Origin: Janthinobacterium lividum
GTDB lineage: Bacteria > Pseudomonadota > Gammaproteobacteria > Burkholderiales > Burkholderiaceae_D
Assembly (NCBI RefSeq): GCF_023509035.1
Contig: NZ_CP075583.1
Coordinates: forward strand, 4,898,001-4,962,000
Direction of reading: 5' to 3'
DNA length: 64,000 nt
The translations under genes and the position numbers were made by a program. Shown here piece by piece: positions 3-29,538 of the stretch (position 1 is its first letter; each line of letters opens with the position of its first letter). Below the pieces are notes generated by a model, which made no database searches, was not told the DNA's origin, and was given only the letters and a program-made list of their open reading frames with translations.

Positions 3-3000
3 CCATGGCCGCAGGCGGGCCGCATCGATTATTTCGACGCCGACGCCTGGGCACAGCTGGCCGCCGGTGACGGACAAGCTGGCCTGCCCGGCGGCTGGCA
101 GGCGCCAGAGGCCCAGGCGCTGGCCGCGGCGCGCGCCACCGTGGCGTTGCTGGAAGCGGCCCCGCTCGACGCCCGCCATTGCAGCTACCTGGCCGGCTGT
201 GCCGACACGCCGGTGGCGCTGCGCCTGCGCGACGGCGGCATCGAGACAGCCTGGTCGCCGGACGGCGATGGCCGCACGGCCTGGCAAGGCGCGGTGCCGG
301 ACGGCGTGGCGGCCTGCTACTTGCCGGTGGCGCATGGCGACCTGCTGCTGCAAAAGGAAACCTACCCGGCCATCGCGCAGCTGCTCGACAACGGCCAGGG
401 CGCCAACCTGCCGCGGCACCCGCCGCACGCGCCTGGCGGCGCCCCGCCCCGTTTCCATCCGTGCGCCCCCGACGCCATGCCGCTGTACCCGCAGCCGCAG
501 GAATTGCTCGACGCGGCCATCGGCGCCGCCGGCCCCGCCAGCGCGCCTGACAGCCGCGCGCCGCAGCTGAGCCTATCCGTCATCCACGGCAGCATGGCTT
601 CGGCCGACGCGCCCGTCATGAGCGGCTGCTACGCGTCCGAATCGCTGCGCGGCAGCATGAGCTTCCTGGACCGCCTGCTGGCGGGCAAGCTGCAGGAAAT
701 CCACGCGCTGGGACGCTTTCCGCAACGTCCCGACTCCGCCCTGGTGGTGCTGCAGCCCGATGCGGCGCGCCGGCCCGGCGGCGCCATCGTCATCGGCCTG
801 GGCGCGCTGGGCGAACTGACGCCGGGCGAACTGGCGCGCGCCTTTGCCGGCGGCCTGCTCGAATACGCGTGCGTGTGCCTGCAGGTGCACGCCGCCGGCC
901 ATGTGGCCGCGCCGCCGATGGGCGAGCACGGTTTGCGCGTGGCCAGCCTGCTGTCCGGTTCCGGCTACGGCGGCTTGAGCATCGCCCTGTGCGTGCGGGC
1001 CATGATCGACGGCGCGCGCAGCGCCAACCGGCGCCTGGAAGACGCGGGCATGGCTTGCCGCATCGGCCATATCGCCATCTACGAACAGTCGGAGGCGCGC
1101 GCCATCGCCGCCGCCGTGGCCATCGAACAGATCATGGCCGAGGCGCGCTACCAGGGCAGCTTCACGTTCGAGCGGCGCATCCGCCACAGCCCGGGCGGCT
1201 ACCGGCGCATCCTGCCCAGCCTGAGCGGCGACAATGGCTGGCGCCGCGTGCAGATCGTCGCCGCCGATCTCTCCGGCGCCCTGCGCTTCACCGTGCTGAC
1301 GGACCGCGCCCACAACAGCGTCGACGAGGAGCCGAACCAGCGGCAAGCCGTCGATGGCCTGATCATGGACGCCACCGACAACACCACCGACCAGCCAGGC
1401 CTGTCGCGCGCCCTGTACGAACTGATGCTGCCCAATGGCCTGAAGGCGGCCATCCCCGAAATGCGCGGCCTGATCCTGGCCGTCGACCAGAGCGCCGCCA
1501 TCTATCCATGGGAGCTGATGCGCGACGAGGCGGGCAGCGAGGAAAGCCCGCTGTCGACGCGCATCGGCATGGTGCGCCAGTTGGCCAGCCTGCGCGAGCA
1601 GCCATCCGCCGTCAGCCCGCCCAGCAACAGCGTGCTGGTGATCGGCGACACCGATTCCGGCCTGCCCGAACTGCGCGCCGCGCAAGCCGAGGCGCAGGAC
1701 GTGGCGCGCATGTTCGGCGCGTACGGCTACCAGGTGCGCGAGCTGCTGCGCCCGCAGGCGCAGCGCGTGCTGGTGCACCTGTTCGACGAGCGCTACTTCG
1801 CCATCCACCTGGCCGGCCACGGTGAAGTGGCCGGCCCCGGCATCGCCCATACGGGCCTGGTGCTGGGACCGAAGACGCGGCTGACGGCGGCGCAGGTGGG
1901 CAAGCTCAAACGCGTGCCGCAATTCGTCTTCATCAATTGCTGCCACCTGGGCGACATGCGCCCGGACGCCATCGCGCCGTGGTCGAAACTGGCCGCCAGC
2001 CTGGCCACGGCCTTCGTTGAAATGGGTTCGCAGGCGGTGATCGCGGCCGGCTGGCGCATCGACGACCAGGCGGCCAGCATCTTCGCGCACAGCTTTTATC
2101 ACGCCATGCTGAGCGGCGAGTACTTCGGCGACGCCGTGCGCCTGGCGCGCGAGGCGGCATATCTGCAGTTCCCCGCCTCGAATACCTGGGGCGCCTACCA
2201 GGCGTATGGCGATGACCGCTACCGCTTTCCGAACACCCAGAGCCGGCCCTGGCAAGCGCCCGACTACCATTACCACGGCCACCTGCTGGCCGACCTGGAA
2301 ACCCTGCACGCACGCCTGGCGGGCGCCGATCCTGCGCGCCGCGCGGCCATCGAGGAAAAGCTGGCCAGCATCGAGGAAGCCGTGCGCGCGCGCTTCTTCG
2401 GCTGCGCCGACATCCGCGAAAACATGGCCGCCACGCGGGCCGGCCTCGGTGGCCTGGACAACACCCTGCGCGCCATCGAACACTACAGGGCGGCGCACAG
2501 CGCGGCCGACGGCAAGGTGGGCTTGCGCGCGCTGGCGCACTGGGCGGAACTGGAAATACGCCAGGGCGCGGCCCTGTGCGGCCTCGATGCGGGCGCCGGC
2601 ATCGAGGTGCCTGCCGTGCCGGATAGGGCGCAGGGACGACAGTTGCTGCAGGACGGAAAACAGCATATCGACCTGCTGGTGGCGCTGGCGCCCACGGCGC
2701 AGCGCCTGGCCCTGCTGGGACGCTACTGGGCCTTGCAGGCGCGCCTGGCCTGCGGCGAAAGACATTCCGGCGCGGCGGCCCTGCGCGCCATGACGGACGC
2801 CTGCCTGGCCGCGCTGGAAGAAGCGCGGCGGCGCAGCGGCGTGGCCGACTGCGACCTGATTTTCCAGGTGCTGGCGGGCGCCCTGCTATTGAAAGCCCAT
2901 GGCGACAGCGGCGCCTGGCGCGCGCTCGATCCGCAACTGGGGGACTTGCTGCACGACGCCATCACCTATGCGCGCCAGCGCCACGCGGACGAACACCGCG

Positions 3001-3338
3001 CCATCGACGCCGGCGCCCCCGTGCGCGCCGCCCTGCTGGCGGCCCTGTGGCAGGCACCGGACGGCCAGCCCTTCGACGCGCCCGCGCGCGCCGCTTTCCT
3101 GGCCCTGTACCACGACGCCGTGCGGCGCCACGGCAGCATCGGCGAACCCGAGGCGATCACGGCGCCGCTGCGCTTCCTGCTCGAACTGCTGCCGCCCGAC
3201 AGCGCGGAGACCGGCTTGCGCAGCGCCGTGCAGGCGCTGGCCAGCCAGCTGCAGTCCTCAATTCCCGCTATCAGCCAGGCACTACCCCGTAATGGCGCGC
3301 ATAGCGCTCATCCAGATTCGCCAGCGGCATCATCATGA
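3..3338 (+). CDS. CHAT-domain (caspase-like) protein, 5' end outside the window
   Basis: The reading frame is open from base 3 with no convincing start, so the gene begins before the window; the GTG at 141 has no ribosome site. About 1,110 codons are visible. The middle carries the two CHAT-protease signatures: HLAGHG with the catalytic His codon at 1818-1820, preceded by a hydrophobic strand, and FINCCHLG with adjacent Cys codons at 1938-1943. The remaining 460 or so residues after it are Ala/Leu-rich and helical, possibly TPR-like. CHAT proteases are caspase/separase relatives, and several known ones are effectors in conflict or cell-death systems. Whether this one has a partner cannot be judged because the upstream neighbourhood is missing. 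The last 22 codons overlap the 3' end of convergent olsB. Confidence 0.85.
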   Translation, partial: PWPQAGRIDYFDADAWAQLAAGDGQAGLPGGWQAPEAQALAAARATVALLEAAPLDARHCSYLAGCADTPVALRLRDGGIETAWSPDGDGRTAWQGAVPDGVAACYLPVAHGDLLLQKETYPAIAQLLDNGQGANLPRHPPHAPGGAPPRFHPCAPDAMPLYPQPQELLDAAIGAAGPASAPDSRAPQLSLSVIHGSMASADAPVMSGCYASESLRGSMSFLDRLLAGKLQEIHALGRFPQRPDSALVVLQPDAARRPGGAIVIGLGALGELTPGELARAFAGGLLEYACVCLQVHAAGHVAAPPMGEHGLRVASLLSGSGYGGLSIALCVRAMIDGARSANRRLEDAGMACRIGHIAIYEQSEARAIAAAVAIEQIMAEARYQGSFTFERRIRHSPGGYRRILPSLSGDNGWRRVQIVAADLSGALRFTVLTDRAHNSVDEEPNQRQAVDGLIMDATDNTTDQPGLSRALYELMLPNGLKAAIPEMRGLILAVDQSAAIYPWELMRDEAGSEESPLSTRIGMVRQLASLREQPSAVSPPSNSVLVIGDTDSGLPELRAAQAEAQDVARMFGAYGYQVRELLRPQAQRVLVHLFDERYFAIHLAGHGEVAGPGIAHTGLVLGPKTRLTAAQVGKLKRVPQFVFINCCHLGDMRPDAIAPWSKLAASLATAFVEMGSQAVIAAGWRIDDQAASIFAHSFYHAMLSGEYFGDAVRLAREAAYLQFPASNTWGAYQAYGDDRYRFPNTQSRPWQAPDYHYHGHLLADLETLHARLAGADPARRAAIEEKLASIEEAVRARFFGCADIRENMAATRAGLGGLDNTLRAIEHYRAAHSAADGKVGLRALAHWAELEIRQGAALCGLDAGAGIEVPAVPDRAQGRQLLQDGKQHIDLLVALAPTAQRLALLGRYWALQARLACGERHSGAAALRAMTDACLAALEEARRRSGVADCDLIFQVLAGALLLKAHGDSGAWRALDPQLGDLLHDAITYARQRHADEHRAIDAGAPVRAALLAALWQAPDGQPFDAPARAAFLALYHDAVRRHGSIGEPEAITAPLRFLLELLPPDSAETGLRSAVQALASQLQSSIPAISQALPRNGAHSAHPDSPAASS

Positions 3339-22834: not shown

Positions 22835-23701
22835 ATGAACGATTTTACCCACGAGTTTACACACGACTACGTCCGCATCGACGGCCAGCGCCTGCATTGC
22901 GTCATCGCCGGCGAAGGCAAACCCGTGCTGCTGATTCCCGGCTGGCCGCAAACCTGGTATGCCTGGCGCCACGTGATGGCGGCCCTGGCCGCCAACGGTT
23001 ACCAGGCCATCGCCATCGATCCGCCCGGCAGCGGCCACTCAAGCCGTCCTGCGGATGGCTACGACACGGGCGCCGTGGCGACCACCCTGCACCGCACCAT
23101 GCTGGCCCTCGGCCATGCACAGTACGATGTCGTCGGCCACGACATCGGCATGTGGGTCGGCTACGCGCTGGCCAGCGATTTCCCGCAGGCCGTGACGAAA
23201 CTGGCGCTGACGGAAGCCGTGATCCCAGGCCTGGCGCCGGCGCCGCCCATTTTTGTCGCGCCGTCCGACAACATCTTCCTGTGGCACTTCATGTTCAATC
23301 AGGTGCTGGACTTGCCGGAAATGCTCACGGCGGGCAAGGAGCGCGAATATATCCGTTTCATTCTTGACCGCTGGTCGTACCGCCGCGACAAGGTGGCCGT
23401 CGACGTGTATGCGGATGCCTACGCCACGCCGGGCGCCCTGCGCGCCGGTTTCGCCTACTACCGCGCCATCCCCGAAACCATACGGCAAAACCTGGAGCGG
23501 GCGAAAAAGAGCCTGGCCATGCCCGTGCTGGCCATCGGCGCCGACCACGCGACGAATGACGCGCCCCTGCTGACCATGCAGGGTAAGGCGGCTAATTTAA
23601 AAGGCGCCATCGTCGCCGAATGCGGGCACTTCATCATGGAAGAACAGCCGGAAGCGTTCATCGCCCACCTGCTGCCCTTCCTCGCGGGAGAGCCGGCATG
23701 A
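22835..23701 (+). CDS. Alpha/beta hydrolase, epoxide hydrolase-like
   Basis: 288 residues. The HGW-type oxyanion segment appears as IPGWPQTWYAWRHV. The nucleophile elbow is VGHDIGMWVGYALA, with Asp as nucleophile, the hallmark of epoxide hydrolases and haloalkane dehalogenases rather than esterases. A cap domain contains two candidate Tyr residues (RFILDRWSYRRDK and GFAYYRAI), and the late AECGHFIMEEQPEAF supplies the catalytic His. AAGGAAACCCC precedes the ATG. It lies inside the TetR-controlled operon and overlaps the next gene by 4 bases (ATGA), implying coupled translation. Confidence 0.88.
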   Translation: MNDFTHEFTHDYVRIDGQRLHCVIAGEGKPVLLIPGWPQTWYAWRHVMAALAANGYQAIAIDPPGSGHSSRPADGYDTGAVATTLHRTMLALGHAQYDVVGHDIGMWVGYALASDFPQAVTKLALTEAVIPGLAPAPPIFVAPSDNIFLWHFMFNQVLDLPEMLTAGKEREYIRFILDRWSYRRDKVAVDVYADAYATPGALRAGFAYYRAIPETIRQNLERAKKSLAMPVLAIGADHATNDAPLLTMQGKAANLKGAIVAECGHFIMEEQPEAFIAHLLPFLAGEPA

Positions 23702-24628
23702 GCCTCGATCCGCTGATCGCCGCCTGGCTGGAACAGACAAGGGATGCGCCGCCGCCCGCCTCGCTGGCAGACTTGCGCGCGGCCACGGAAACGGGCTTGC
23801 GCCAGCTGCATGGGCCGCTGGAGGATGTCGCGTCGATCAGGGATTACGTGCTTCCCGGTGAACATGCATTGACCGTGCGCGCCTATGTGCCGGCCGGCGC
23901 GGATACTGCCAAGCCTCTGCCCGCCATCGTCTTTGCGCATGGGGGGAGGATGGTGTCTGTGCTCGCTGGACCTGTACGACAATCCTTGCCGCGCGCTGGC
24001 CAACGCCACCGGCTGCGTGATCTTTTCCGTCGATTACCGGCTGGCGCCCGAGCACAAGTTCCCCGTGCCGCTCGACGACTTTTACCGGGCGTTGTGCTGG
24101 GTCGCCGAGCATGCCACGGCGCTGGGCATCGATGCACGACGCCTGGCCGTGGGCGGCGACAGCGCGGGTGGCAACCTGGCGGCGGCAGCGGCCCTGATGG
24201 CGCGCGACCAGGCCGGCCCCGCGCTGGCGCATCAGCTGCTGCTGTACCCGGCGCTCGATTTTGCCTTCGACACACCGTCCTACCAGCGCTATGCGGAGGG
24301 CCATTCGCTGACCCGGGAAGCCATGCGTTTTTGCTGGTCGGCGTACCTGAACGAGCCGGCTGACGGCATGCAGCCTTACGCGGCGCCCCTGCGGGCAGCT
24401 ACGCTCAAGGACTTGCCGGCGGCGACCGTGCTGGTATGCGAGTACGATCCGCTGCATGACGAAGGCGCTGCGTATGCGCTGCGCTTGCGCGACGACGGCG
24501 TGGCGGCCGAGTGTGTGCAGCTCGACGGCATGATCCATGCGTCGATGCACATGCCGGGCTTGACGCCAGCTGCGCGGGGATTGTTTGACGTGGCGGGCCA
24601 GGCGATGCGAAAAGCGCTGGCGGCATGA
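23698..24628 (+). CDS. HSL-family alpha/beta hydrolase (frameshifted)
   Basis: A 309-residue esterase after correction. The frame breaks at a run of six G (23941-23946): with five, the sequence reads FAHGGGWCLCSLDLYDNPC, the HGGG oxyanion motif of hormone-sensitive-lipase-type enzymes. Other motifs: SVDYRLAPEHKFP, nucleophile GGDSAGGNLAA, and late EYDPLHDEG and GMIHASM supplying Asp and His. Start ATG 23698 overlaps the upstream stop (ATGA). The extra G is most likely a sequencing or assembly error. It is the third gene of the TetR-associated operon; with an epoxide hydrolase and a TIM-barrel isomerase this suggests breakdown of a small ester or epoxide compound. Confidence 0.85.
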
Positions 24629-24680: not shown

Positions 24681-25217
24681 TCACTCCACCAGCTTGCGCA
24701 CCTCGATGGCGTTGAGCCACTTCACATGGCGCGGACCCGTACGAATGTCTTTCGCCGAGATGAGGGCGATCTCGCCGTCGTTGTCGTCGAGCGCCTTGCC
24801 GTTTTTTTCGTAGTAGACGATCACGCCCTCGCCGGCCGGCGCGTTATACAACTCGCCCCAGGAAAACACCACGGCATAACCATCCGTGGCCGTGGCGATG
24901 ATGGCGAGTTTCTTGACGTCGTTGTGGCCGGGCGCATCCAGCGCCGCCTTGTCGAGGATATCGCGCAGGCGCACGCCCTTGTAACTGGTGATGGTCTCGG
25001 CCTTGTCGCCGTTATGGCGCGTGACGGCGATGTCCCCGCCATTCGCCGGCGGCAGCTGGCGCAGGTCAGCCACCTTCAGGATCAATGGCGTTGCCACCTT
25101 GCCCGTCACGGCAAGCGCGTGGCTCATATTCTCGCCTGCCGGCGCCGGGTCGGCCCACGCGGGCGCCGCCGCCAGCAGTGCGGCCGAAACGAGGCTAGTC
25201 AGTATTGTCTTCAACAT
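24681..25217 (-). CDS. Secreted small molybdopterin-domain-like protein
   Basis: 178 residues from ATG 25217 (AAGGA six bases upstream), with a signal peptide (MLKTILTSLVSAALLAAAPAWADP). The mature part resembles the sulfite-oxidase-type molybdopterin-binding fold in reduced form: LAVTGKVATPLILKVADLRQLP, SYKGVRLRDILDKAAL, TDGYAVVFSWGELYN, VIVYYEKNGKALDDNDGEIALI, HVKWLNAIEV. It lacks the cysteine that ligates Mo in true sulfite oxidases and is half their length, so catalysis is doubtful and a binding role is more likely. It lies 27 bases downstream of the TonB receptor on the same strand, before a terminator. The pair is therefore a two-gene operon, probably under the ModE-like sites. Confidence 0.78.
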   Translation of the reverse strand: MLKTILTSLVSAALLAAAPAWADPAPAGENMSHALAVTGKVATPLILKVADLRQLPPANGGDIAVTRHNGDKAETITSYKGVRLRDILDKAALDAPGHNDVKKLAIIATATDGYAVVFSWGELYNAPAGEGVIVYYEKNGKALDDNDGEIALISAKDIRTGPRHVKWLNAIEVRKLVE

Positions 25218-25244
25218 GCTGTGTCCTTTCATGACAGTGAAAAA

Positions 25245-27241
25245 TCAGAACTGGTATTGCGCATTGGCCAGCCAGGTGCGGCCCGCGCTGGGGAAACCGT
25301 CAGCCAGCGCGTAATTGCGGTCAGCCACGTTGCTCACGCCCGCTTCCAGGCTCAAGGCCGGCAAGGGGCGGTACACGGCCTTCAGGTTCACGCTGGCAAA
25401 GCCGCCAAGTTCCAGGGTGTTCGAGACCCAGCGTCCGCTGTTCATTTCCGCGATCGCCACCACGTCGACCTGGCGCGCCGCGTGCATCACGGCGTGCGCC
25501 GTCAGCTTGTGGCGCGGCACGTCCGTCAGGCGCGTGGCGCGGTCGCTGACGTTCTTCATCTCCGTATAGGTGTAATTGCCGCCCCAATCGAGCCAGGCGC
25601 CGGCGCTGCCGCGCGCAAGCCCAGCTCCACGCCGCTGATATGCGCCCTGCCCGCGTTGCGCATCTGCGCGCGCACGCCCGACACATTCGCCACGCTCTGG
25701 ATCTTGTCCTTCACGTCGCTGTAGAAAAGCGCCGCGTCCAGCGCCAGTCCTTGCGCCTTGCCCTGATAGCCCAGTTCATAATTCATCGCCTCTTCCGCGC
25801 GCAAGGCCGGGTTCTCGATATACGTGCCCAGGCGCTGCGAATAGCGGTCCTTCAGGGTCGGCAGGCGCGACTTGCGCGCCACCGTGGCGTACACCCTCGC
25901 CTCGGGACTGGTCTTGTAGAACAGGCCCGCCTGCAGGTCCGTGGCCGATTGATTACCCGGCAAGGTATACGCATTGCCGGCGCTGTAGACGGTGTCCGGG
26001 CGCAGCGCATTGCGCGAGGCGCTCAGCGACAGTTCGGTCGCCGCATTCAGGGCGATGCTGTCTTCCGCGCCCAGGGTCCACAGGGCATCCTTGTACCAGG
26101 TGGTGCGCACGCCCTTGGCGTCCAGTTCCTGGTGTTCGTCGGCCTTGTAGCTGGCCACGACGCGCAGGCTGTGCGCGGCCAGGCGGAACGATTCCAGCTC
26201 CACCGCGCCGCCGTTCGTGCGGTCGTTATAGATGCTGCGCCCGCCGCTGACGCTGCCCTGGCCGCTGGTCTTCAGGGTCGTATAACGGCCATTCGTGAAC
26301 GAGGTGATTTCATTGTCGTAGCTGTCGTGGTACAGGCGCAATTTCAGGCGCTCGGCCTCGCCCAGACGCGTCTGCGAAACGAAATACACGCTTTCCTTGT
26401 TCCAGTATGGCCACTGCCAGTAGCGCGCGCCGACGGGATTGGTCGATGGCGGCTGGCCCTTTTCGCCATGCTGCTTGTAGTAGCTGAGTGCGTATTCATC
26501 ACCAAACTGCGCATCGCCGCCCACGGGCGTGTAGCCCACCTTGAACGACAGTTTATGGTCCTTGCGGTAGGCATTGTTGCGCGTGCCGCCGTCTTCCGTG
26601 GCCGTGGCGCGGAAGTCGGACGACAGGGGAAAACCGTCGCTGTCGATGTACGACACGCCCGCCTGCAGATACCACAGGCCCTGGTTCGTGCCCACGTTGG
26701 CCGATACCTGGCGCTCGCTGCCCGAGCCAAAACCGATGGAAGTATCGCCTTCCATCAGCGCTGACGGCTTGCGCGACACCAGGTTGATGGCGCCGCCCAG
26801 GGTATTGGCGCCATAGGCCACGGAACTGTAGCCCTTGGCCACCTGGATGGCGGCCAGGTCGGCCGTCGTGAAGCGGTTGAAATCGACATAGCCGTCATAC
26901 GGCACGTAGACGGGAATGCCGTCGATGTACAGCGGCACCTGGCGCGCATCGAAGCCGCGGATGGCGACGGTTTTTTCATTGCGCGCATTGGTCGACAGCG
27001 ACACGCCGGACAGCAGATTCAAGGCGTCGCCCACGTTGTCGCGGTTAAAGCGGCGCATCTCGGCGCGGCTCACTTGCGCGCCCACCTGTTGTTCCAGCTG
27101 GCCTGCCTGCTCGCGCTGGCCGATCACCGTCACCGTGCCCAGCACGAACGGCGCCGCCGCATCCGCGTCTTCCTTGCCAGCGGCCTGCTGCGCCAGCACC
27201 AGCATCACAGCGCCCGCCATTACCTGTTTCACCATCGTCAT
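25245..27241 (-). CDS. TonB-dependent outer-membrane receptor, predicted Mo-responsive (frameshifted)
   Basis: A 665-residue TonB-dependent receptor after correction. Signal peptide (VMAGAVMLVLAQQAAG), TonB-box-like GTVTVIGQ, and plug domain (NVGDALNLLSGVSLST, VAIRGFDARQVPLYIDGIPVYVPYDGYVDFNRF, ANTLGGAINLVSRKP) are followed by a 22-strand-type barrel ending ANAQYQF with the terminal Phe expected for the BAM complex. The frame is lost near 25609-25612: one missing base (CC for CCC on the plus strand) turns GAWLDWGGNYTYTEMKN out of frame. Two ModE-consensus palindromes lie upstream, one over the predicted promoter and one adjacent to the start, and the downstream gene encodes a molybdopterin-domain-like protein. 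I infer uptake of molybdate, tungstate or a molybdenum chelate; siderophore or other substrates are alternatives. Confidence 0.88.
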
Positions 27242-27251
27242 ATTGTTCTCT

Positions 27252-27279
27252 TTCGTTATATATCGCTTTATATAGCGAT
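27252..27279 (-). promoter_or_regulatory. ModE-like operator 1, next to the receptor start codon
   Basis: Compared with the ModE consensus as I recall it (ATCGnTATATA, 6 nt, TATATAnCGAT), the plus strand here reads TTCGTTATATA, TCGCTT, TATATAGCGAT: every defined position agrees except the first. It ends 11 bases before the receptor's ATG, where a bound protein would block leader transcription. It also contains a perfect 8-bp inner inverted repeat (27260-27281). Confidence 0.8.
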
Positions 27280-27316
27280 ATGCGGCGGCCACTGCTACGG
27301 CTGGTCGTCATCCAGC

Positions 27317-27344
27317 AGCGCAATATACAGATGTATATAGCGAT
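27317..27344 (-). promoter_or_regulatory. ModE-like operator 2, over the receptor promoter
   Basis: Plus strand: AGCGCAATATA, 6 nt (CAGATG), TATATAGCGAT, two mismatches to the ModE consensus. It lies 65 bases from operator 1, centre to centre. It covers the spacer and -10 of the predicted promoter, a classical repressor position. Confidence 0.7.
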
Positions 27345-27350
27345 GCTCAA
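27322..27350 (-). promoter_or_regulatory. Predicted sigma-70 promoter of the TonB-receptor operon
   Basis: Minus strand: TTGAGC (27350-27345), 17 nt, TATATT (27327-27322). The start of transcription would be near 27315, giving a leader of about 74 nt that includes ModE-like operator 1. Confidence 0.6.
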
Positions 27351-28382: not shown

Positions 28383-29538
28383 ATGATACGCGACGAAGAA
28401 ACCCTGAACATCCTGCTCGACAGCATCGCCCGTTTCGTGCGCGAAGTGCTGGTGCCGAACGAGGCGCTGGTGGCCGAAACGGACACGATCCCGCCCGCCA
28501 TCGTGGCGCAGATGCGTGAACTTGGCCTGTTCGGCCTGTCCATCCCGGAAGCCTACGGCGGCCTGGAACTGAGCATGGAAGAGGAAGTGCGCGTGGCGTT
28601 TGAAATCGCCCGCACCTCGCCCGCCTTCCGTTCGCTGATCGGCACAAACAACGGCATCGGCTCGCAAGGCATCGTTATCGACGGCACGGAAGCGCAAAAA
28701 CAGCATTACCTGCCGAAACTGGCGGCCGGCGAGATCATCGGCTCGTTCGCCCTGACGGAAGCGGGATCAGGCTCCGACGCGGCATCCCTGCGCACGAGCG
28801 CCGTGCGCGACGGCGATTTTTATATCCTCAACGGCAGCAAGCGCTATATCACCAACGCGCCCGAAGCCAGCATTTTTACCGTCATGGCGCGCACGGACCC
28901 CGTCAAACGTGGCGCTTCGGCCATTTCCGCCTTCATCGTGGAAAAGGATACGCCGGGCCTCTCGCTGGGGAAAATCGATAAAAAGATGGGCCAGCAAGGC
29001 GCGCATACCTGCGACGTCATCTTTGAAAAACTGCCGCGTCCCGGCCGCAAATATCATCGGCGGCAAGGAAGGCGTGGGTTTCAAGACAGCCATGAAAGTG
29101 CTAGACAAGGGCCGTTTGCACATCGCCGCCGTCTGCGTGGGCGCGGCCGAACGCATGCTGGCCGACGCCCTGGCCTACGCCATGGAGCGCCAGCAGTTCG
29201 GCCAGCCCATCGCCGAGTTCCAGCTGATCCAAGCCATGCTGGCCGACAGCAAGGCCGAGATCTACGCGGCGCGCAGCATGGTGCTCGACGCCGCGCGCCG
29301 GCGCGACAACAAGGAAGACATCTCGACGGAAGCGTCGTGCTGCAAGCTGTTCGCCTCCGAAATGTGCGGCAGAGTCGCTGACCGCTCCGTGCAGATCCAC
29401 GGCGGCGCCGGCTACATCAGCGAATACGCGGCCGAGCGCTTCTACCGCGACGTGCGCCTGTTCCGCATTTATGAGGGAACGACGCAGATCCAGCAGATCG
29501 TCATCGCCCGCAACATGATCAAGGCAGCGCAAAAGTGA
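28383..29538 (+). CDS. Acyl-CoA dehydrogenase (frameshifted)
   Basis: A 384-residue FAD enzyme after correction. N-terminal helical domain (LNILLDSIARFVREVLVPNEALVAET), FAD/substrate signature SFALTEAGSGSDAASLRTSAVRDGDFYILNGSKRYITNA, middle beta domain, and C-terminal helices with GRLHIAAVCVGAAERML, RQQFGQPIAEFQLIQAMLAD, IHGGAGYISEYAAERFYRDVRLFRIYEGTTQIQQI. The usual catalytic Glu region is YEGTTQI. Five A at 29026-29030 instead of four break the frame at IFE-NCRVPAANIIGGKEG; the two halves otherwise match. It sits between an IclR regulator and an acyl-CoA synthetase, so it should oxidise the CoA ester made by the next enzyme. Confidence 0.88.

What the first reader, a model, noticed from the sequence alone, without database searches (positions are those of the whole stretch)
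24681..27350. Predicted molybdenum-repressed TonB uptake operon: two ModE boxes, a TonB receptor and a secreted molybdopterin-domain-like protein
Seen: two palindromes matching ModE's consensus as I recall it (one mismatch at 27252-27279, two at 27317-27344) lie upstream of a TonB-dependent receptor. One covers the spacer and -10 of its predicted promoter (TTGAGC, 17 nt, TATATT), the other ends 11 bases before its ATG. The next gene in the operon, 27 bases on, is a secreted protein resembling the molybdopterin-binding fold, without the Mo-ligating Cys. Known: ModE-Mo represses molybdate transport genes. Inference: the receptor carries molybdate, tungstate or a metal chelate across the outer membrane when Mo is scarce. 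ModE control of an outer-membrane receptor with such a periplasmic partner would be a little-described acquisition system.
Basis: partly seen in the sequence, partly recalled or inferred. Interest (0 to 1): 0.88.

Follow-up and report, generated by a model that had tools for sequence, protein, structure and literature searches.

The report
Molybdenum-starvation outer-membrane uptake operon
This two-gene operon very probably makes an outer-membrane gate, switched on when molybdenum runs short, that helps the bacterium take up scarce molybdenum, and relatives of it sit beside molybdate-transport genes in many other bacteria.

Summary
Two ModE-type operators (1 and 2 mismatches) lie upstream of a TonB-dependent receptor and a small secreted SUOX-fold protein. 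They are two of only three such sites (up to 3 mismatches) in the 6.26-Mb genome; the third precedes modA of modABC-modE. The link is conserved: over 58 dereplicated relatives, mostly beta- and gammaproteobacteria, an operator lies within 400 bp upstream in 31 of 58 (background tiles 17 of 2305), a mod gene within about 8 kb in 37 of 58, one or other in 50 of 58. In six loci the receptor directly follows modABC. Receptor-bearing genomes in two samples all have a ModE hit (11 of 11, 6 of 6; 6 of these 17 entries below the curated cut-off). Best reading: a ModE-Mo-repressed receptor that brings molybdate, tungstate or a Mo chelate across the outer membrane. Ligand, ModE binding and uptake are untested. 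The small protein resembles pterin-binding PruR in fold, but its line mostly keeps the Mo-ligand cysteine, lost here. The receptor frame is broken in this assembly, probably by sequencing error. Ten paper searches of the held library showed no such system; a key older paper is not held.

The parts
27317..27344 (-). ModE-type operator 2, over the spacer and -10 of the predicted promoter
   Evidence: 2 mismatches to the consensus; kept in all 6 same-genus loci of the family sample, own included, with 2 or 3 mismatches
27322..27350 (-). predicted sigma-70-type promoter TTGAGC-17-TATATT
   Evidence: consensus scan only, 9 of 12 positions; 0.6 such sites expected by chance
27252..27279 (-). ModE-type operator 1, in the predicted 5' leader, 10 bases before the ATG
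   Evidence: 1 mismatch; kept in all 6 same-genus loci of the family sample, own included, with 1 or 2 mismatches
25556..27241 (-). TonB-dependent receptor, N-terminal part (plug and most of the barrel), from the likely ATG at 27241; the listed ORF starts at GTG 27292
   Evidence: PF07715 73 bits, PF00593 71 bits; model of the LM6 orthologue has the TBDT fold
25245..25559 (-). TonB-dependent receptor, C-terminal part, in another frame in this assembly
   Evidence: matches the C-terminal ends of TonB receptor families; continuous with the first part in LM6 and other orthologues
24681..25232 (-). small secreted SUOX-fold protein (second possible start at 25217)
   Evidence: PF00174 40 bits; model pLDDT 87.8, PruR and sulfite dehydrogenase fold; behind the receptor in relatives that have it

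Best explanation
A molybdenum-acquisition operon. When cytoplasmic molybdate is plentiful, ModE-Mo binds both operators: one covers the promoter, the other lies in the leader just before the ATG, so transcription is blocked. When molybdenum is scarce the operators are free and the cell makes a TonB-dependent outer-membrane receptor plus a small periplasmic SUOX-fold protein. The receptor uses TonB energy to bring molybdate, tungstate or more likely a molybdenum chelate into the periplasm. The small protein receives or processes the ligand there, and molybdate goes on to ModABC (in some relatives perhaps to a MolBC-type ABC importer). Shown here: sequences, sites, modE, predicted folds, conserved linkage to mod genes. 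Inferred: repression, direction of transport, ligand, hand-over.
For: Operators are specific: 3 places in the genome, two here, one upstream of modA, while the genome has 74 plug-domain hits, this one included. Both boxes in all 6 same-genus receptor loci of the family sample, own included; in 145 family genomes 11 of the 20 places with up to 2 mismatches are at this receptor, reversed control 0. In 58 dereplicated relatives, operator with up to 3 mismatches within 400 bp in 31 of 58, against 17 of 2305 background tiles; within 1000 bp in 37 of 58. Over all 80 loci 50 of 80 against 4 of 80 for the reversed pattern. At least one mod gene in the locus in 37 of 58, ModE in 33, ModB or ModC in 26. 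Receptor right after modABC in L029, L041, L043, L049, L072, L089; receptor, small gene, modA(BC) in L053, L063, L064, L067, L070; ModA and ModB of L029 confirmed by family models. Receptor goes with modE (E up to 1e-15): 11 of 11 against 93 of 145, and 6 of 6 against 50 of 274 (own genome in both; without it p = 0.009 and 0.00016, relatedness not corrected).
Against: No binding, expression or uptake data. The ligand cannot be read from sequence. 6 of 58 relatives have neither a mod gene in the locus nor an operator (up to 3 mismatches) within 1000 bp: L048, L058, L081, L083, L086, L087. 18 of 58 loci have no such site anywhere in the stretch held, among them mod-linked ones such as L029, L049, L052, L055, L072, L076, L082. 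In G080, G114, G140, G290, G336 and G368 the ModE hit is below the curated cut-off. The small protein was not found in 22 of 58 relatives, so the receptor can do without it. Two same-genus genomes have modE but no receptor hit. The receptor frame is broken in this assembly.
Confidence: 0.82

Rival explanations
1. The receptor is a siderophore (or other cofactor) receptor that ModE happens to control, for example because low Mo changes the cell's iron or nitrogen economy; it does not carry molybdenum.
For: Nearest solved receptors are siderophore, cobalamin, haem and copper receptors. In Azotobacter, three TonB siderophore receptor genes are among the targets switched on by VnfA1 only without Mo and V (PMC9542535 passage).
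Against: Linkage is to modABC and modE over many lineages, including a place right behind modABC. ModE-type sites are otherwise seen only before modA in this genome.
Confidence: 0.12
2. The boxes are chance or relic AT-rich palindromes with no ModE control.
For: Binding not tested; in 18 of 58 relatives no such site was found.
Against: 0 in 100 shuffles, reversed control 0, two sites kept in the same-genus genomes and found in distant relatives at about 70 times the background rate.
Confidence: 0.03
3. The small protein is a pterin sensor like PruR, and the operon is a pterin-signalling rather than an uptake unit.
Against: No dcpA- or sensor-kinase-type gene beside it: its other neighbour is an esterase gene on the other strand. 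PruR has Trp in place of the Cys (PMC13259868), whereas this line mostly keeps the Cys. The small gene lies behind the receptor in 35 of the 36 representative loci that have it.
Confidence: 0.06

Closest known systems
ModE regulon with ModABC (E. coli type, molybdate-responsive repressor)
   Same: Same operator consensus (PMC545781, PMC2700814 passages) and modABC-modE in the genome
   Different: The usual targets (recalled) are the inner-membrane ABC importer and Mo enzymes; here it is an outer-membrane receptor. PMC2700814 says the predicted Geobacter regulon holds 'several transport systems' without naming them in the passage seen
TonB-dependent metal-chelate receptors (Cir, PfeA, BtuB, OprC; nearest folds)
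   Same: Plug-barrel domains and model fold
   Different: Below the cut-off of every NCBIfam receptor model listed for the window copy (25 listed) and for LM6 (6 listed); linked to molybdenum genes
PruR periplasmic pterin-binding proteins (7kom, 7kou, 7rkb)
   Same: Compact secreted SUOX fold without the rest of the enzyme
   Different: Cys in most relatives, Arg in this copy, instead of Trp; partner is a TonB receptor, not DcpA or a DTB kinase
SUOX-family Mo enzymes (sulfite oxidase, nitrate reductase, MsrP/YedY)
   Same: Fold, VKWL motif, and in relatives a Cys aligned with that of Pichia nitrate reductase
   Different: Single short domain; the window copy lacks the Cys and a twin-arginine signal
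H2-T6SS ModA-IcmP molybdate route of P. aeruginosa (PMC8602904 passages)
   Same: Another proposed outer-membrane step for molybdate
   Different: Uses secreted ModA and a metalloproteinase outer-membrane protein, not a ModE-box TonB receptor

Membership tests
TonB-dependent transporters | Plug domain plus beta-barrel | tested here: met
   PF07715 and PF00593 over cut-off; LM6 orthologue model matches BtuB, OprC and Cir; the number of strands was not counted
TonB-dependent transporters | TonB box and TonB-dependent transport | not tested
   no call looked for the TonB box; transport needs experiments
ModE regulon | Operator matching ATCGNTATATA-N6-TATATANCGAT at the promoter | tested here: met
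   the promoter itself is only a weak consensus match
ModE regulon | modE gene in the same genome | tested here: met
   (106 bits, cut-off 98.5); two Mop domains in the same protein
ModE regulon | Sites conserved upstream of orthologues | tested here: met
   not in every lineage (18 of 58 loci without)
ModE regulon | ModE-Mo binds and represses | not testable with these tools
   needs gel shift and expression data
PruR pterin-binding proteins | Small secreted SUOX fold | tested here: met
PruR pterin-binding proteins | Trp in place of the Mo-ligand Cys | tested here: not met
   Arg in the window copy, Cys in 25 of 37 rows of representative loci; sequence alignment, not a solved structure
PruR pterin-binding proteins | Adjacent dcpA or DTB gene | tested here: not met
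   neighbours are the receptor and an esterase gene
SUOX-family Mo enzymes | Mo-ligating Cys | tested here: not met
   absent in the window copy; present in many relatives
SUOX-family Mo enzymes | Tat (twin-arginine) export | tested here: not met
   no RR in the window signal peptide. Among the 56 rows there, RR shows in L032, L051 and L080 (L080 is a wrong-frame row); rough, as some printed N-termini are not true starts

The most novel reading that the evidence does not exclude
The receptor imports a molybdenum complex of an organic ligand (a molybdophore, or even a pterin such as molybdopterin/Moco released by other cells), and the SUOX-fold partner, exported without cofactor and without Tat in this copy, is the periplasmic acceptor that holds the pterin or Mo chelate and frees molybdate for ModABC. 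That would be a dedicated outer-membrane route for complexed molybdenum, spread over beta- and gammaproteobacteria.
Probability: 0.2. Interest if true: 0.9.

Novelty: new variant of a known kind. Interest (0 to 1): 0.74.

Why it matters
How Gram-negative cells get scarce molybdenum, and molybdenum held by catechol siderophores, across the outer membrane is an open question (recalled). This gives a concrete receptor family with a regulator, a partner protein and linked ABC transporters, in culturable genera such as Janthinobacterium and Duganella, so the question becomes a gene-deletion experiment. It also ties small stand-alone SUOX/PruR-type proteins, and DUF2478, to molybdenum uptake.

Tried and rejected

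Studholme and Pau 2003, the paper most likely to list ModE targets in proteobacteria, is not held; its content was not seen. RegPrecise, which may list TonB receptors in ModE regulons (recalled, unsure), cannot be searched here. So 'not described' rests only on the ten paper searches, read as listings (several capped: for example 20 of 162, 40 of 64), with passages opened in six papers: PMC545781, PMC11734730, PMC9542535, PMC8602904, PMC13259868 (78, and section 7 in 84) and PMC2700814.

Idea that the small protein is simply PruR: rejected as membership (Arg or Cys, not Trp; no dcpA). Idea that it is a Mo enzyme: rejected for this copy (no Cys). The receptor could not be given to a named NCBIfam receptor family: the window copy (25 matches listed) and LM6 (6 listed) are below all those cut-offs; for the other 33 rows of A4 one search prints no scores against cut-offs.

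Rows dropped or doubtful: L026 has no receptor in one frame and was left out of the 58; the tree rows L061 and L080 turned out to be wrong-frame ORFs (very long branches). Their mod and box counts use tblastn positions and stand, but their places in the tree and their status as separate representatives do not. The tree needs at least 14 changes of the mod label (shuffled labels 17.2 on average, 23 of 500 shuffles as low), so linkage is scattered rather than one frozen event; it cannot tell gain from loss. The first script for the Cys column printed the wrong column and was redone. One search stopped with an error and was redone; the count 'small_down' (24 of 58) is too low because of start-codon choice and is not used. 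The reversed-pattern control reaches 22 of 80 at 5 mismatches, so sites with 5 were not counted.

Full report
WHAT IS THERE. On the minus strand, from right to left: a predicted promoter (27350-27322), ModE-type operator 2 over its spacer and -10 (27317-27344), operator 1 (27252-27279), an ATG at 27241, a TonB-dependent receptor down to 25245, and a small secreted protein at 25232-24681. Pfam gives Plug 73 bits and TonB_dep_Rec_b-barrel 71 bits for the receptor and Oxidored_molyb (PF00174) 40 bits for the small protein. The next gene leftwards is an esterase on the other strand, so the operon looks like two genes; to the right stands an IclR-type regulator gene.

A FAULT IN THE ASSEMBLY OR THE GENE. 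The receptor lies in two frames (25556-27292 and 25245-25559). The esterase gene (23698-24628) and an acyl-CoA-dehydrogenase-like gene (28383-29538; label from the look of the translation, no family search) also look split over frames. Against LM6 (L016) the window shows 102 gap openings in a 14.8-kb alignment, most of one or two bases; L016 against L017 shows 57 in 13.5 kb. Of the 14 close Janthinobacterium loci (L016-L028 and L045), 13 have the receptor in one frame and L026 does not. Sequencing error is likely but not proven.

THE OPERATORS ARE NOT CHANCE. In the window the core pattern has 2 matches and none in 100 shuffles. In the whole genome there are 3 places with up to 3 mismatches and none for the reversed pattern; the third lies upstream of modA, followed by modB, modC and modE. 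ModA, ModB and ModE reach their family cut-offs; ModC has TIGR02142 (modC) as best hit but below its cut-off. The genome has 74 plug-domain hits, so this receptor is the only one of these with such sites. In 145 genomes of the family 20 places have up to 2 mismatches; 11 are at this receptor in the own genus; the control is 0. The consensus was seen in print in PMC545781 and PMC2700814 (passages).

MODE IS THERE. TIGR00637 hits the own genome once, 106 bits, over the cut-off. All 11 receptor-bearing genomes of the family sample (E up to 1e-80) and all 6 of the class sample (E up to 1e-120) have a ModE hit at E up to 1e-15, against 93 of 145 and 50 of 274 overall. The hit is below the curated cut-off in G080, G114, G140, G290, G336 and G368. 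The own genome is in both samples; without it the hypergeometric chances are 0.009 and 0.00016, with no correction for relatedness. The other way round does not hold: many modE genomes, two of the same genus among them (G048, G072), lack a receptor hit.

THE RELATIVES. One scan with 7 receptors (A1) found 223 encoded relatives and kept the best 80: Janthinobacterium, Duganella, Herminiimonas, Pseudomonas, Acinetobacter, Dechloromonas, Azonexus, Sideroxydans, Thiobacillus, purple sulfur bacteria and others. Operator core within 400 bp upstream: up to 1 mismatch 22 of 80, up to 2 31 of 80, up to 3 50 of 80, up to 4 60 of 80; reversed control 0, 0, 4 and 7 of 80; shuffles gave 3 of 1600 at up to 4. 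After dereplication at 80% receptor identity 58 loci remain. Operator with up to 3 mismatches within 400 bp: 31 of 58, against 17 of 2305 tiles of 400 bp elsewhere in the same loci (Fisher p 2e-42). Five of the nine background tiles with up to 2 mismatches (in L046, L050, L069, L073, L092) lie at or just ahead of a small gene that precedes the receptor. Within 1000 bp: 37 of 58; in 18 of 58 loci no such site was found in the whole stretch held.

MOD GENES NEXT DOOR. tblastn with the own ModA, B, C and E (60 bits or more; ModC at least 38% identity) finds at least one in 37 of 58 loci, ModE in 33, ModB or ModC in 26. Arrangements differ: modABC then receptor (L029, L041, L043, L049, L072, L089); receptor, small gene, modA(BC) (L053, L063, L064, L067, L070); modE and modAB(C) divergent from the receptor (L052, L055, L056, L077); modE behind the small gene, on either strand (L036, L037, L040, L051). 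ModA and ModB of L029 were confirmed by family models. Mod gene or operator within 400 bp: 50 of 58; taking 1000 bp adds L046 and L094, making 52. The remaining six are L048, L058, L081, L083, L086 and L087; L048, L081, L083 and L086 have the small gene, L058 a Peripla_BP_2/FecCD pair, and L087 nothing found.

OTHER NEIGHBOURS. A Peripla_BP_2-type binding protein is in 13 of 58 loci and a FecCD-type permease in 9 of 58, not always close to the receptor. The permease of L085 is nearest in the PDB to HI1471 (5e-61), and the binding protein of L058 hits HI_1472 weakly among others. That HI1470-1472 is the molybdate/tungstate MolBCA importer is recalled; a paper on MolBC-A appeared in a listing (PMC4031551). 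DUF2478 is in 10 of 58 loci, in 9 of which the small gene was not found.

THE RECEPTOR. Its sequence is a general TonB receptor: best PDB relatives are the colicin I receptor Cir, siderophore receptors and BtuB, and the window copy and LM6 reach none of the NCBIfam cut-offs listed for them. The model of the LM6 orthologue (pLDDT 86.3) matches BtuB, OprC, Cir and PfeA. The ligand cannot be inferred from this.

HOW IT PROBABLY WORKS. With Mo, ModE would cover the promoter (operator 2) and the leader before the ATG (operator 1), a layout that fits repression better than activation. Without Mo, receptor and small protein are made. The receptor brings a Mo compound into the periplasm; ModABC takes molybdate on. 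Regulation by Mo: about 0.93 likely. Uptake of Mo (or W) in some form: about 0.82. Whether free oxyanion or chelate: open, chelate somewhat more likely because TonB receptors usually handle large or very dilute ligands (general knowledge).

NOVELTY. TonB receptors for metal chelates and ModE regulons are both known kinds; their union in a family that sits in mod clusters was not found in the held papers (searches; listings, partly capped). Related but different: the T6SS ModA-IcmP route (PMC8602904 passages) and Azotobacter receptors under VnfA1 (PMC9542535 passages). The key older paper on ModE sites is not held, so earlier mention cannot be excluded.

Noticed in passing
L107 (G067) 927-3026: A ModE-type box (1 mismatch) lies upstream of a DUF2478 gene beside a different TonB-receptor gene, perhaps a second receptor type linked to molybdenum.
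   Followed up: partly
L108 (G018) 125-2592: A ModE-type box (2 mismatches) near a DUF2325 gene, another small PF00174 protein and a TOBE-domain frame; this genome had no receptor hit at the threshold used.
   Followed up: partly
L046, L050, L069, L073, L076, L082, L092 upstream of the receptor: A small gene of unknown family (126-156 aa, no Pfam match for the L092 copy) precedes the receptor; in five of these loci (not L076, L082) a ModE-type box with up to 3 mismatches lies at or just ahead of it.
   Followed up: partly
window 23698-24628 and 28383-29538: Other genes also look split by frame changes; the window has more short gaps against LM6 than two relatives have against each other.
   Followed up: partly
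L065 3754-5163: Two copies of the small SUOX-fold gene lie in a row behind the receptor; the second stands in a longer open frame of 290 aa.
   Followed up: no
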